Below, piece by piece: positions 48,185-51,526 of a DNA stretch of 64,000 bases. The stretch lies in assembly GCA_030430495.1 (NCBI GenBank), contig JAUIKM010000007.1, positions 62,001 through 126,000 on the forward strand. Direction: 5' to 3'. The notes under the pieces were generated by a model that was not told where the DNA came from, searched no databases, and saw nothing but the letters and a program-made list of their open reading frames with translations. A program made the position numbers and the translations under genes. Numbering within the stretch: position 1 is the first letter of the stretch; the number at the start of each line of letters is the position of its first letter. The stretch is from a bacterium. GTDB taxonomy: Bacteria > Bacteroidota > Ignavibacteria > Kapaibacteriales > UBA7675.

Positions 48185-48194
48185 TTGCAATACC

Positions 48195-48294
48195 GGCGTC
48201 CGGCGCGGATAATGGTTACTTCGCATGGAGCAACGGACTACCTAATCCGTCCCGAGGTTCGATTCCTCATACCATTCCAAATTTTACCGACGCC
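48195..48294 (+). ncRNA. Y RNA 1 (tRNA-mimic type, near-complete cloverleaf)
   Basis: Terminal helix: GGCGTC (48195-48200), bulged C48201, GG pairing with CC (48287-48288), closed by GACGCC (48289-48294). A second helix AATGGT/ACCATT (48211-48216/48271-48276) is followed at once by TACTTCG (48217-48223). Inside is a tRNA-like fold: D-arm CTTC/GGAG (4-base loop), anticodon-like stem ACGGA/TCCGT with an 8-base loop, and a T-arm GAGG/CCTC with loop TTCGATT. CCA (48277-48279) follows the acceptor-like strand. The bulged-C helix is the Ro-binding signature of Y RNAs. The short D-loop without GG and the outer helix argue against a true tRNA. Confidence 0.85.
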
Positions 48295-48331
48295 TTTGTT
48301 TAAGCGCGGCTGATTGCTCAACAGCGACAAT

Positions 48332-48460
48332 TTGCACCCGGCGCTGAAAACGGTTACTTCGACTGTCACTCGATGTGGGTTCGACTCCCACCCGGAGCGG
48401 GGTTTCCCGCCCGGCGGCTCGTCCGGCAGAGCCGACTCCGTTTTCCATTTTCCGGTGCAG
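48332..48460 (+). ncRNA. Y RNA 2 (T-arm mimic type)
   Basis: Terminal helix: TTGCACC (48332-48338), bulged C48339, GG/CC (48340-48341/48452-48453), GGTGCAG (48454-48460, one G-U at the end). Second helix GAAAACGG/CCGTTTTC (48346-48353/48438-48445), 8 perfect pairs. TACTTCG at 48355-48361. A canonical T-arm GTGGG/CCCAC with loop TTCGACT (48375-48391) follows, then further hairpins (GCGGG-GTTT-CCCGC; CGGCTC/GAGCCG). It ends six bases before Y RNA 3, so the two are probably cut from one precursor. Confidence 0.85.
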
Positions 48461-48466
48461 CGTTAT

Positions 48467-48584
48467 TTGCGTCCGGCGTTCGAGGTCGGTTACTTCGAAC
48501 CCGGGCCCCATCGGGATCTTTTGCAGGTCCGGATGGGGCCCGTGGCAAGATCACCAAATGACTGCCTTACATTTCCCGACGCAA
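48467..48584 (+). ncRNA. Y RNA 3 (hairpin type)
   Basis: Terminal helix: TTGCGTC (48467-48473), bulged C48474, GG/CC (48475-48476/48576-48577), GACGCAA (48578-48584), all paired. TACTTCG at 48491-48497 preceded by a short GGT/ACC helix. Instead of a T-arm it carries one 11-bp hairpin CGGGCCCCATC/GATGGGGCCCG (48502-48512/48532-48542) with a 19-base loop. The helix sequence differs from copies 1 and 2 on both strands while pairing is kept. Confidence 0.85.
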
Positions 48585-48757
48585 TGTATTGTTGCCGCGC
48601 AGCAGAAAAACGCCCAACGAAAAGAACAGAACCGCAGTCACACTGACTTAAACTGTTCAGTCCGCATACAAACCGCACAGGTCTTGCATCCGACCGTCAA
48701 TGCGTCGGCATCTGCGCTCAAAACTGCACGTGCCGCCTGACAACCTGCATTAACATG

Positions 48758-48789
48758 TTGATTGAATGCGGCCAGGTCCTGTCTGTTTG
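48758..48789 (+). promoter_or_regulatory. Possible internal promoter for Y RNA 4
   Basis: TTG (48758-48760), a 21-base spacer and TCTGTTTG (48782-48789), one base off TAnnTTTG. It lies in the only long gap of the array (48585-48803), with the predicted start a few bases before the Y helix at 48804. Confidence 0.4.
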
Positions 48790-48803
48790 CCGCATCAGTC
48801 AAT

Positions 48804-48926
48804 GTTGCGTCCGGCGTCTGGAGACAGCTACTTCGAACTGAGGCCCTTGCGCGGCTCTGCGAGCCGCGCATGTTGGTAAGTTTCTGGATTGATACAATCC
48901 GCTGTTTTCGCCTTTTCCGGCGCAAC
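48804..48926 (+). ncRNA. Y RNA 4 (hairpin type)
   Basis: Terminal helix: GTTGCGTC (48804-48811), bulged C48812, GG/CC (48813-48814/48917-48918), GGCGCAAC (48919-48926, one U-G). Second helix GGAGACAGC with GCTGTTTTC (48820-48828/48901-48909), nine pairs with two wobbles. TACTTCG (48829-48835) follows it directly. The effector part is a perfect 10-bp hairpin TGCGCGGCTC/GAGCCGCGCA with loop TGC (48848-48870) and a smaller GGATTG/CAATCC stem (48886-48900). TTTT follows the 3' end, a possible terminator. Confidence 0.87.
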
Positions 48927-48997
48927 TTTTTGCCAGGTTGACATTGGCGTTCAGCGATGTTGAATTCACGTTGAACTCGATGCGCGATCCCAGGACT

Positions 48998-49100
48998 CAA
49001 CGCCCGGCGATTGAAATGGATACTTCGGTATAGAGCACCGGACTGTTCCGGCGGGACGTCGTTCCCATTCGCATGCCATTTCTACTTTTTTCCGGCGTTG
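48998..49100 (+). ncRNA. Y RNA 5 (tRNA-mimic type)
   Basis: Terminal helix: CAACGCC (48998-49004), bulged C49005, GG/CC (49006-49007/49092-49093), GGCGTTG (49094-49100), fully paired. Second helix GAAATGG/CCATTTC (49013-49019/49076-49082). TACTTCG at 49021-49027. The middle reads like a tRNA: TAGAGCA typical of a D-loop end, an anticodon-type stem CCGGA/TCCGG with a shrunken 4-base loop CTGT, and a T-arm-like GGGA/TCCC with loop CGTCGT (49053-49066). Confidence 0.85.
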
Positions 49101-49140
49101 TTTGATTCCGCTGATACAGAAGATTGTATTGCATCGACTT

Positions 49141-49277
49141 TGTTAAACACATCCGGCGCAGATGACGGATACTTCGACTACGTCCACGTGGGTTCGAATC
49201 CCACTCGCCGCAGCCCCGTCTGCAGCGATGCTTTTGGTGAAGCAGAAACCGTTGTTGTTTTTCCGATGTGTTTAACA
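49141..49277 (+). ncRNA. Y RNA 6 (T-arm mimic type, longest Ro helix)
   Basis: Terminal helix: TGTTAAACACATC (49141-49153), bulged C49154, GG/CC (49155-49156/49263-49264), GATGTGTTTAACA (49265-49277); 13 perfect outer pairs. Second helix GATGACGG/CCGTTGTT (49161-49168/49249-49256) with wobbles. TACTTCG at 49170-49176. A canonical T-arm GTGGG/CCCAC with loop TTCGAAT (49188-49204). It ends 169 bases before the Ro60 start codon. The long perfect helix around the same bulge makes this the clearest member. Confidence 0.9.
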
Positions 49278-49446
49278 GTTTAACACTGAAAGCTTGCACT
49301 GTCCGGCCGATCGATTCTCGTACAGAGACGAACAAAAAAATCATGTCAGAAAGGTGGGTACGAATGTAGCCGCCCGGATTTATTGCGCTGTTAAAACGAT
49401 CAAATCGGTCGTGGACGACGATGCGCACATCGCATAGGAGGCCGTC

Positions 49447-50952
49447 ATGGCTCGATTTAACACTATTGCCTCGGTGCCGACTGTTGAAAACCTTGCAGGA
49501 GGCAACGTATTCCCGATTTCGCCGCGACGCGAATTTGTTTTTCTCGTGCTGACGTCGCTGATGCAGGATACGTTCTACGAGAAAGCGGATGTGCGCATGG
49601 CCCGATTGCGCGAGTTGATTCCGCTCGTGGGCCGCCGCTTTGCGGCACAAACGGCCATGTACGCACGTCACGAACTGGGCCTGCGCAGCGTCAGCCACGT
49701 CATTGCGGCTCTGCTGCCGTCGGTGACGGAGAATTCTCTGTCATACGGCGGAAGCGATTTTTTCCGCCAGGTCGTGCGCCGCCCGGACGATATGACGGAA
49801 ATCATGGCCGCGTTTGAGATGTTTAACAAATCCTCGGCAGGGGATAAACTTAAACTCCCGTGGGCGCTGCGTCGCGGTTTTGCCGCGGCGTTTAACAAGT
49901 TCGACGAATACCAACTGGCCAAATACCGCGGCGAAGGCAAAGCCTGGACCCTGCTCGACGTCATGCGTTTGGTGCACGCCAAACCGACGGAAGCAAATGC
50001 GGATGCGTTGGCAAAACTGGCGGCGGGCGAACTGCGCTCCACCTCTACCTGGGAAGCGCGCCTTTCCGCCGGTGAGGACAAAGCGCTCGTCTGGCGTGAA
50101 CTCGTCGAAGGCGGACAACTGGGAATGATGGCTTTGCTGCGCAACCTGCGCAACATGGCCGAACAATGTGAGGAATCCACGTGGCTCGCAGCGCTGGAGC
50201 AATTGTCCAACGCCGAACGCGTGCGCGCCTCGCTGATCATGCCTTTTCGTTTTCTGACGGCGTCCAAAGTCATCGAGTTCTCGCGCATGGCCGCCGCGCG
50301 TAAAGCAGGCGCGCTGGAGGCTCTGTCCGCAGCACTCGAACACTCGCTGGCCAACGTGCCGGAACTCGGCGGGCGCACGCTTGTGGCGGTCGACATTTCC
50401 GGCTCGATGAGCCAACCGCTTGCAGCCATGTCGCGCGCTACCGCCGTCGACGTCGCCTCGCTGTTCGGCGCGGTGATGGCCAAAAACATGCGGGCCGAGC
50501 TGATGGCTTTTGCCAGTAATGCAGGTTTTGTGCGCTTCTCTTCGGCCGACTCCCTGCCGACGATCGCCGAATGCATTAAAACCGGCAGCGGCGCGGGCAT
50601 CAAAGGCTGGGGCACCTGCGCTCCGGCCATCCTGGAGAAACTGCTGCGCGGCAAACACGCCTTTGATCGCGTTGTGATTATCTCCGATATGCAGACCTGG
50701 CAACACAGCGATTTCGGCAACGGCGACTTCCAACCCCTGTGGCACCGCTACCGGCGGCGGATAGCGCCGACGGCCAGGCTGTTCACGATCGACATTTGCG
50801 GGTACGGGCACTCGCTTGTACCCGAGCACAATGTCGCCGCCGTGGCCGGCTGGTCGGATCGAATCTTCACGTTCATGTCGATGCTCGACAAAGAGCCCAA
50901 ATCAATTGAACGGACGATTGAGGCCGCATTCCCGCTCGCAGACGGCAACTGA
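49447..50952 (+). CDS. rsr: Ro60/TROVE-domain RNA-binding protein (Rsr)
   Basis: A 501-residue Ro orthologue. The TROVE HEAT-repeat ring covers about residues 1-300, with the family segment EYQLAKYRGEGKAWTLLDVM and LVHAKP near 155-180. The C-terminal vWA domain (about 310-495) has an intact MIDAS: Asp316, Ser318 and Ser320 in VDISGSMS, Thr in GWGTCAP, and the later Asp in IISDMQTW. Ro rings bind Y RNAs on the outer surface and misfolded RNA ends in the cavity; bacterial Rsr works with PNPase or other nucleases in RNA turnover. Start ATG 49447 follows a perfect AGGAGG. Six Y RNAs lie directly upstream. Confidence 0.96.
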   Translation: MARFNTIASVPTVENLAGGNVFPISPRREFVFLVLTSLMQDTFYEKADVRMARLRELIPLVGRRFAAQTAMYARHELGLRSVSHVIAALLPSVTENSLSYGGSDFFRQVVRRPDDMTEIMAAFEMFNKSSAGDKLKLPWALRRGFAAAFNKFDEYQLAKYRGEGKAWTLLDVMRLVHAKPTEANADALAKLAAGELRSTSTWEARLSAGEDKALVWRELVEGGQLGMMALLRNLRNMAEQCEESTWLAALEQLSNAERVRASLIMPFRFLTASKVIEFSRMAAARKAGALEALSAALEHSLANVPELGGRTLVAVDISGSMSQPLAAMSRATAVDVASLFGAVMAKNMRAELMAFASNAGFVRFSSADSLPTIAECIKTGSGAGIKGWGTCAPAILEKLLRGKHAFDRVVIISDMQTWQHSDFGNGDFQPLWHRYRRRIAPTARLFTIDICGYGHSLVPEHNVAAVAGWSDRIFTFMSMLDKEPKSIERTIEAAFPLADGN

Positions 50953-51055
50953 TCGACAAAACCGCCGCGCGGACTACCAAAGTCGCGCGGCGGTTGGTAT
51001 TTTAAAGGCCCGGCGATCGTCAAAGCAAAAAACAGGAGAAGGATGGGAACCCGGA

Positions 51056-51526
51056 ATGGAAAAAATTGAGCTCTGGCGCCTGCTGGACCAGAACCTCTGG
51101 ACCACCTCTCGCACGGCGCGCTTTTTTGAATGCGCCGCCAGCACCATACGTCTGCACGTGCAGCAACTGACGGCGGAAGGCCGCCTGCAGACGGTCGATT
51201 TTCACGGTAAAAACAAAATTCACCTCTCGCTCATCCACGTGGCGGACCTCAATCTGCTGCGACCGGAGAGTGTACCCGCCTCGCGGCGACTGCCGCGCGC
51301 CACCATGTCCAAAAAGCAGCTGACCAAACTGTTGGAGCGGGAAACGCTGACGCTGGAAGAAGTCTGTGAAGAGGCCGGCGTCAGCCAGGCGCTCGTCTGG
51401 CAACGCGTCGCCGTCGCCGCCAAGCGCGGCGAGTCGATCGGTTATGCATTTGAAGGCGGCCGTCTGCGAATCTACCATCGCTCGGAACTGGCGCTTTTTG
51501 GACGCAAGTACGCCCGCCGCGGGTGA
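51056..51526 (+). CDS. Small protein with two helix-turn-helix segments, downstream of rsr
   Basis: A 156-residue basic protein. The first HTH-like segment is at about 15-45 (TTSRTARFFECAASTIRLHV) with a following wing (FHGKNKIHLSL); the second, at about 95-130, is LTLEEVCEEAGVSQALVWQR. A basic hinge separates them. It could be a transcription regulator or an RNA-binding partner of the Ro/Y complex. It begins 103 bases after rsr on the same strand. The ATG at 51056 has no good ribosome site of its own; GGAGAAGG instead serves an ATG at 51043 that encodes MGTRNGKN and stops inside this gene, so translation may be coupled. No family recognised beyond HTH. Confidence 0.7.
   Translation: MEKIELWRLLDQNLWTTSRTARFFECAASTIRLHVQQLTAEGRLQTVDFHGKNKIHLSLIHVADLNLLRPESVPASRRLPRATMSKKQLTKLLERETLTLEEVCEEAGVSQALVWQRVAVAAKRGESIGYAFEGGRLRIYHRSELALFGRKYARRG

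What the first reader, a model, noticed from the sequence alone, without database searches (positions are those of the whole stretch)
48211..48279. Y RNA 1 encloses a near-complete cloverleaf with a CCA after the acceptor strand
Bases 48211-48276 fold as acceptor (6 of 7 pairs), D-arm (4 bp, 4-base loop), anticodon-type arm (5 bp, 8-base loop) and T-arm with TTCGATT. CCA follows at 48277-48279. It could be cut by RNase P/RNase Z-like activity or modified by tRNA enzymes (pseudouridine in the T-loop). The short D-loop lacking GG argues that it is not an elongator tRNA.
Basis: partly seen in the sequence, partly recalled or inferred. Interest (0 to 1): 0.62.

Follow-up and report, generated by a model that had tools for sequence, protein, structure and literature searches.

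The report
tRNA-derived module inside bacterial Y RNA
The stretch is the head of one of six small "Y RNAs" beside a bacterial Ro60 gene; the head is built from part of an arginine-type tRNA, but its apparent acceptor stem is really the Y RNA's own stem, and comparison shows that bacteria and phages graft tRNAs onto Y RNAs in at least three different ways.

Summary
The locus is a Y RNA array: CCGGCG-N(8-12)-TACTTCG occurs six times in 48200-49176 and nowhere else in the window (0.01 expected), just upstream of a Ro60/Rsr gene (TROVE). Unit 1 (48193-48297) has a Ro60-type stem with a bulged C. Its "acceptor" AAUGGU/ACCAUU is the Y RNA upper helix, found with different bases in every unit, and it continues into the Ro60 stem. 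CCA is therefore internal, unconserved, and encoded in only about 4 of 42 tRNA genes of this genome. The head is genuinely tRNA-derived: it aligns to the genome's own tRNA-Arg(UCU) better than any of 4,642 other windows. Known YrlA is a circularly permuted tRNA, with the Y stem entering at the anticodon. Unit 1 keeps tRNA order (D3'-anticodon arm-T), and so do many relatives. A pattern for intact "sequential" Y RNAs hit 14 viral contigs, and all 14 encode TROVE. A third form enters at the D-loop. Unit 1 itself is degenerate: below Rfam's tRNA and YrlA thresholds, 8-nt anticodon loop, no GG D-loop. Verdict: a new variant of a known kind. TruB modification is plausible; CCA-dependent or RNase P/Z processing is unlikely.

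The parts
48193..48297 (+). Y RNA unit 1 (ends approximate); the finding lies inside it
   Evidence: CCGGCG-N11-TACTTCG at 48200-48223; outer stem GGCGTC 48195-48200 / GACGCC 48289-48294, or the same with a bulged C plus CGG/CCG; upper helix
48211..48216 (+).
   Evidence: pairs with 48271-48276; all six units have a different paired sequence here
48217..48223 (+). constant UACUUCG motif at the start of the effector; C48219-C48222 also the 5' strand of the D-like arm
   Evidence: 6 of 6 units; invariant in 14 sequential units of other bacteria
48227..48251 (+). tRNA-derived D-arm 3' strand (GGAGC) and anticodon-type arm with 8-nt loop
   Evidence: alignment to own tRNA-Arg(UCU); hairpin in 0.9% of shuffles
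48254..48268 (+). T-arm, 4 bp, loop UUCGAUU; position equivalent to U55 is 48259
   Evidence: sequence
48271..48276 (+).
48277..48279 (+). CCA, in the internal loop between upper helix and Ro60 stem; judged incidental
   Evidence: not at this position in the other units; about 4/42 own tRNA genes encode CCA
48332..48460 (+). Y RNA unit 2, permuted YrlA-like effector (T-arm, CCGG hairpin, D-like arm)
   Evidence: weak YrlA RF02553 hit 19.7 bits, E 0.39; fold z -3.0; tRNA-Leu-like T-arm region score 37
48467..48584 (+). Y RNA unit 3, effector a long hairpin without T-arm
48804..48926 (+). Y RNA unit 4, hairpin effector without T-arm
48998..49100 (+). Y RNA unit 5, perhaps a decayed relative of unit 1 (GUAUAGAGCACCGGACUGUUCCGG)
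   Evidence: tRNA alignment 27, not above chance
49140..49278 (+). Y RNA unit 6, permuted YrlA-like effector with canonical T-arm; 13-14 bp outer stem
   Evidence: weak tRNA hit 18.6 bits
49447..50952 (+). Ro60/Rsr gene (TROVE + vWA_Ro60), 501 aa
   Evidence: PF05731 2.9e-28 and PF25045 1.6e-7; the only TROVE in this genome
47945..47974 (+). promoter-like site upstream of the array (TTGACT-18-TATATT), unproven
   Evidence: 3 such sites found, 1.2 expected

Best explanation
Bases 48211-48279 are the upper helix and effector module of the first of six tandem Y RNAs that partner the Ro60 orthologue encoded at 49447-50952. Shown from sequence: Ro60-type lower stem, upper helix, constant UACUUCG, and an effector that keeps part of a tRNA-Arg-like tRNA (3' strand of the D-arm, anticodon arm, T-arm) in normal tRNA order, with the Y upper helix where the acceptor stem would be. 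Inferred: Rsr binds the lower stem; the tRNA-shaped head projects from it and docks on a tRNA- or structured-RNA-binding partner, most likely PNPase as in the Deinococcus/Salmonella RYPER complex, gating which RNAs reach the nuclease. TruB probably makes pseudouridine at U48259. No aminoacylation, decoding or CCA-dependent processing is expected.
For: Six copies of the Y 5' module against 0.01 expected. Every unit has an outer stem of at least 6 bp and an upper helix whose sequence differs but stays paired. Ro60 gene 1.2 kb downstream on the same strand. The head resembles the genome's own tRNA-Arg(UCU), score 44 against a null maximum of 37, with A-U to G-C double changes in the anticodon and T stems. 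The same UACUUCG plus T-arm layout surrounds other TROVE genes: 268 units, 20 in reversed control. Sequential D-AC-T order recurs: 26 distinct units, 23 with an anticodon hairpin, shuffle mean 3.1 and maximum 10. A pattern for it hit 14 viral contigs, all encoding TROVE. Literature: YrlA's tRNA-like domain is modified by TruB/DusA and binds PNPase (PMC8394870; PMC4726728; PMC7790460).
Against: No orthologue of unit 1 itself was found (no second copy in this genome; best Ro60 relatives 38-43% identical), so its own structure has no covariation support. It lacks a full D-arm and GG D-loop, has an 8-nt anticodon loop and a 4-bp T-stem, and scores below tRNA and YrlA models. An alternative fold is 0.7 kcal/mol lower. 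PNPase docking, Rsr binding and modification are inferred, not tested. Expression is unknown.
Confidence: 0.72

Rival explanations
1. Unit 1 is a real Y RNA, but its tRNA-like head is a decaying graft: the Y stem and Ro60 binding are kept while the head drifts and is no longer recognised by tRNA enzymes or PNPase.
For: Degenerate D-arm, 8-nt loop, mismatch in the T-stem, no tRNA-model score; unit 5 looks like a still more decayed version; units 3 and 4 show that a tRNA head is dispensable.
Against: Two double changes keep pairs relative to tRNA-Arg, and the T-loop UUCGAUU and its closing G-C are intact.
Confidence: 0.22
2. The head is a decoy or sensor for anticodon nucleases: Y RNAs with an anticodon arm (unlike YrlA) present a tRNA-Arg-like loop that ties up or reports the nuclease, in an RNA-repair setting.
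For: Anticodon arms are kept in sequential and D-loop-entry Y RNAs of many taxa and phages; competitive inhibition was proposed for YrlA (PMC7790460); this genome has RtcB.
Against: RtcB is not near this locus; anticodon loops differ widely in length and sequence between units; no functional test.
Confidence: 0.12
3. One reading: the cloverleaf is excised by RNase P/RNase Z-like activity to a 69-nt RNA ending in CCA.
For: Cloverleaf geometry and a CCA at the right place in the sequence.
Against: The 'acceptor' is the Y upper helix and CCA sits in an internal loop closed by the Ro60 stem; CCA is not conserved and is rarely encoded in this genome.
Confidence: 0.04
4. Chance resemblance: an ordinary Y RNA loop that happens to fold into three arms.
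For: Fold energy of the 69-mer is not unusual (z -0.94).
Against: tRNA-Arg alignment beyond 4,642 windows; same order of arms in unrelated Y RNAs.
Confidence: 0.04

Closest known systems
YrlA, tRNA-like bacterial Y RNA (Rfam RF02553; structure PDB 6CU1)
   Same: Ro60-binding lower stem, upper helix, tRNA-derived effector with canonical T-loop, encoded beside rsr. Units 2 and 6 have its order T-arm, acceptor-like hairpin, D-arm.
   Different: YrlA is a circularly permuted tRNA (PMC11472068) described as mimicking the D, T and acceptor arms (PMC8394870). Unit 1 keeps tRNA order, has an anticodon-type arm and uses the Y helix in place of an acceptor. Rfam YrlA does not match it.
Sequential Y RNAs beside TROVE in Saprospiraceae, Rhodothermales, Verrucomicrobiota, Acidobacteriota and viral contigs (found here)
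   Same: UACUUCG then D3', anticodon arm, T-arm, then the Y upper helix.
   Different: They keep a full D-arm with GG and usually a short UUCG/CGAR acceptor helix, and score 42-57 bits as tRNA. Unit 1 has lost the D 5' strand and the CGAR.
D-loop-entry Y RNAs (found here; e.g. L208, L199, L090, L082, viral L232-L234)
   Same: Effector starts inside the D-loop: D3', anticodon arm, T-arm.
   Different: They go on with an acceptor hairpin and often the D 5' strand; unit 1 goes straight to the upper helix.
Deinococcus radiodurans Y RNA in RYPER
   Same: Presumed job: tether between Rsr and PNPase and gate for substrates (PMC4726728).
   Different: Not tested here; sequence not compared.
tRNA-Arg(UCU) of the same genome
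   Same: 36 of 46 aligned columns from D-arm 3' strand to T-arm.
   Different: No acceptor stem, no 5' D strand, extra base in the anticodon loop, shortened variable loop.

Membership tests
Bacterial Y RNA (Rsr/Ro60 partner) | encoded next to a Ro60/TROVE gene | tested here: met
   TROVE at 49447-50952, PF05731 2.9e-28
Bacterial Y RNA (Rsr/Ro60 partner) | paired 5' and 3' ends with a Ro60-type stem (bulged C, internal loop) | tested here: met
   outer stems of 6-14 bp plus CCGGCG / UUUUYCCG in all six units
Bacterial Y RNA (Rsr/Ro60 partner) | bound by Rsr in cells | not testable with these tools
   needs pull-down
YrlA (RF02553) | reaches the Rfam gathering score | tested here: not met
   no unit 1 hit at E<=10; unit 2 only 19.7 bits against 69
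YrlA (RF02553) | circularly permuted order T-arm, acceptor hairpin, D-arm | tested here: not met
   unit 1 order is D3', anticodon arm, T; units 2 and 6 do have YrlA order
tRNA (RF00005) | covariance-model or ARAGORN score | tested here: not met
tRNA (RF00005) | 7-bp acceptor with free ends, 7-nt anticodon loop, GG D-loop | tested here: not met
   helix continues into the Y stem, 8-nt loop, GCAU D-loop
tRNA-like substrate of TruB | T-loop UUCRANN closed by G-C | tested here: met
   G48257-C48265, UUCGAUU; the modification itself not testable here
Sequential (tRNA-order) Y RNA | UACUUCG followed by D, anticodon and T arms inside a Y stem | tested here: inconclusive
   order and motif met; complete D-arm and CGAR not met in unit 1

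The most novel reading that the evidence does not exclude
Bacterial Y RNAs are a general scaffold onto which whole tRNAs are grafted at different breakpoints (anticodon, acceptor end or D-loop). The non-permuted ones carry anticodon arms resembling many tRNA species and serve as decoys or sensors for tRNA-cutting or tRNA-processing enzymes in Ro60 systems; unit 1 is a reduced tRNA-Arg-type example.
Probability: 0.2. Interest if true: 0.75.

Novelty: new variant of a known kind. Interest (0 to 1): 0.52.

Why it matters
tRNA mimicry by bacterial Y RNAs has been described for one permuted form that lacks an anticodon arm. The non-permuted and D-loop-entry forms seen here across several phyla and viral contigs would be read as tRNA genes by standard tools (ARAGORN calls five of twelve checked 'tRNAs', one of them selenocysteine). 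They offer natural controls for which part of the tRNA shape the Ro60/PNPase machine or tRNA-modifying enzymes read. That the graft point moves suggests that the tRNA elbow, with T-loop and D-loop, matters rather than the ends.

Tried and rejected
Rejected: unit 1 as a tRNA gene or pseudo-tRNA on its own; CCA as a processing signal; fold energy as evidence (z -0.94). Too permissive to use: a loose Y descriptor (990 hits, 717 in reversed control) and the 3-mismatch genome pattern. No loci from a single-protein genome-contig scan. A unit-1-like viral pattern with GGAGC gave only protein-coding or repeat hits without TROVE, so no close relative of unit 1 was found. MAFFT placed unit 1 badly in the sequential alignment, so arms were parsed directly; anticodon hairpins were chosen for pairing, hence the shuffle controls. 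No covariance model was built, because it could not be told from tRNA. Chen 2014, Wang 2018 and the Sim/Wolin reviews are not held, so whether sequential Y RNAs are already described there is unchecked.

Full report
What is there. The finding lies between 47.9 and 49.4 kb, in a non-coding stretch upstream of a 501-aa protein with TROVE and vWA_Ro60 domains, the Ro60/Rsr orthologue and the only TROVE gene in the genome. The exact pattern CCGGCG-N(8-12)-TACTTCG occurs six times, all on the + strand between 48200 and 49176; 0.01 are expected. Each copy starts a unit with an outer stem of 6-14 bp, CCGGCG opposite U-rich UUUUYCCG, an upper helix that differs in sequence but stays paired, and UACUUCG at the start of the enclosed domain. 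This is the anatomy of bacterial Y RNAs: Ro60 stem with bulged C, then an effector (PMC4726728; PMC8394870).

The observation. The T-stem is 4 bp plus a C.A mismatch, and the D-like arm has one G-U. The isolated cloverleaf is the minimum-energy fold of the 69-mer but not more stable than shuffles (z -0.94). Inside the full unit it is the best fold once the Y stem is formed, 0.7 kcal/mol above an alternative.

What the 'acceptor' and CCA are. In all six units the bases just before UACUUCG pair with bases just before the 3' internal loop: AAUGGU/ACCAUU, GAAAACGG/CCGUUUUC, UGGAGACAGC/GCUGUUUUCG and so on (units 3 and 5 are weaker). CCA lies in the internal loop between it and the Ro60 stem. It is not at this position in the other units, and only about 4 of 42 tRNA genes in this genome encode CCA. 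Excision with a CCA end is therefore unlikely.

The tRNA-like domain is real. Bases 48217-48271 align to the genome's own tRNA-Arg(UCU) from the 3' strand of the D-arm through the T-arm with score 44. The best of 4,642 other windows scores 37 and shuffles reach 30. One pair in the anticodon stem and one in the T-stem differ from the tRNA on both sides and stay paired. The anticodon loop has one extra base (CUACCUAA) and the variable loop is short. The 5' D strand is supplied, if at all, by the constant CUUC. ARAGORN and the Rfam tRNA and YrlA models do not recognise it. It is a reduced tRNA graft, not a tRNA.

Relatives. Around 116 TROVE loci (one protein-guided scan plus genome searches), UACUUCG-type anchors followed by a T-arm number 268, against 20 in reversed sequence. 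By simple rules, 101 distinct units in 69 loci have the permuted order T, acceptor hairpin, D, that is, the Y stem enters at the anticodon, as in YrlA, whose crystal structure is a circular permutation of tRNA (PMC11472068). About 14 units have full tRNA order (UACUUCG-UA-D-AC-T, often closed by CGAR opposite UUCG), in Saprospiraceae, Rhodothermales, Chitinophagaceae, Verrucomicrobiota and Acidobacteriota. A further group starts in the D-loop and runs D3'-AC-(V)-T-acceptor hairpin-D5'. The rules are crude; 115 units with only a T-arm were not assigned.

Tests of the sequential class. An anticodon hairpin is present in 23 of 26 distinct units, against a shuffle mean of 3.1 and maximum of 10. 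At four of its five positions the pairs take four or five forms while all stay paired in the 13 bacterial units (these hairpins were chosen for pairing, which the shuffles allow for). A blind pattern, TACTTCGTAGCTCA-N(2-6)-GGTAGAGC, scanned over 2.9 million viral contigs gave 14 hits, and all 14 contigs encode TROVE (some near-duplicates, 12 distinct). A D-loop-entry pattern gave 5 hits, 3 with TROVE in the held DNA. Rfam scores the sequential units as tRNA at 42-57 bits, and no YrlA match appears among the 150 matches listed for those loci.

Where unit 1 fits. It has tRNA order and an anticodon-type arm, and the Y helix follows the T-arm directly, as in Saprospiraceae L149. It lacks the complete D-arm of the sequential class and the acceptor hairpin of the D-loop class. 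The window thus holds both permuted (units 2, 6) and non-permuted (unit 1, perhaps unit 5) heads, plus two plain hairpin heads (units 3, 4).

How it most likely works. Shown: sequence anatomy and neighbourhood. Inferred from the literature: Rsr binds the stem; the tRNA-like head docks on PNPase, gating structured-RNA decay; TruB can modify the T-loop (PMC8394870, PMC4726728). A decoy role against anticodon nucleases was proposed for YrlA (PMC7790460) and would suit heads that carry an anticodon arm, but nothing here tests it, and RtcB is elsewhere in this genome.

Limits. Unit 1 has no close relative, so its own arms lack covariation. Expression is unknown. The key papers on bacterial Y RNAs were not readable here, so the novelty of the non-permuted classes is judged from secondary sources and Rfam only.

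Noticed in passing
L169, L154, L152, L141, L151, L147, L155, L163 and others: 27 of 80 named Ro60/TROVE loci carry at least 5 tRNA genes within about 4.5 kb; L169 (Acidobacteria) has 30 tRNAs covering most amino acids around Ro60 and Y RNAs. The window has none.
   Followed up: partly
L153:3887, L136:4353, L164:3803, L155:3693: ARAGORN calls sequential Y RNAs tRNA-SeC(UCA), tRNA-Pro(AGG), tRNA-Thr and tRNA-Leu: likely false tRNA genes in annotations.
   Followed up: partly
L082:6100, L083:5917, L090:5874: Y RNAs of one family (f35) appear to carry a tRNA-Leu-like head with variable arm, broken at the D-loop.
   Followed up: partly
window 51053-51526 (ORF 50816-51526): Small ORF just after Ro60 (MEKIELWRLLDQ..., helix-turn-helix-like) without a Pfam match.
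   Followed up: no
window 48584-48803: 220-nt gap between units 3 and 4 and a CCGGCGTCCGG copy at about 48103 without TACTTCG; possibly remnants of further Y units.
   Followed up: no
L034-L044 (e.g. G002, G011, G014): Other genomes of the same order carry a more distant TROVE type (28-35% identity over the vWA half); a loose motif scan showed no obvious array of this kind there.
   Followed up: partly
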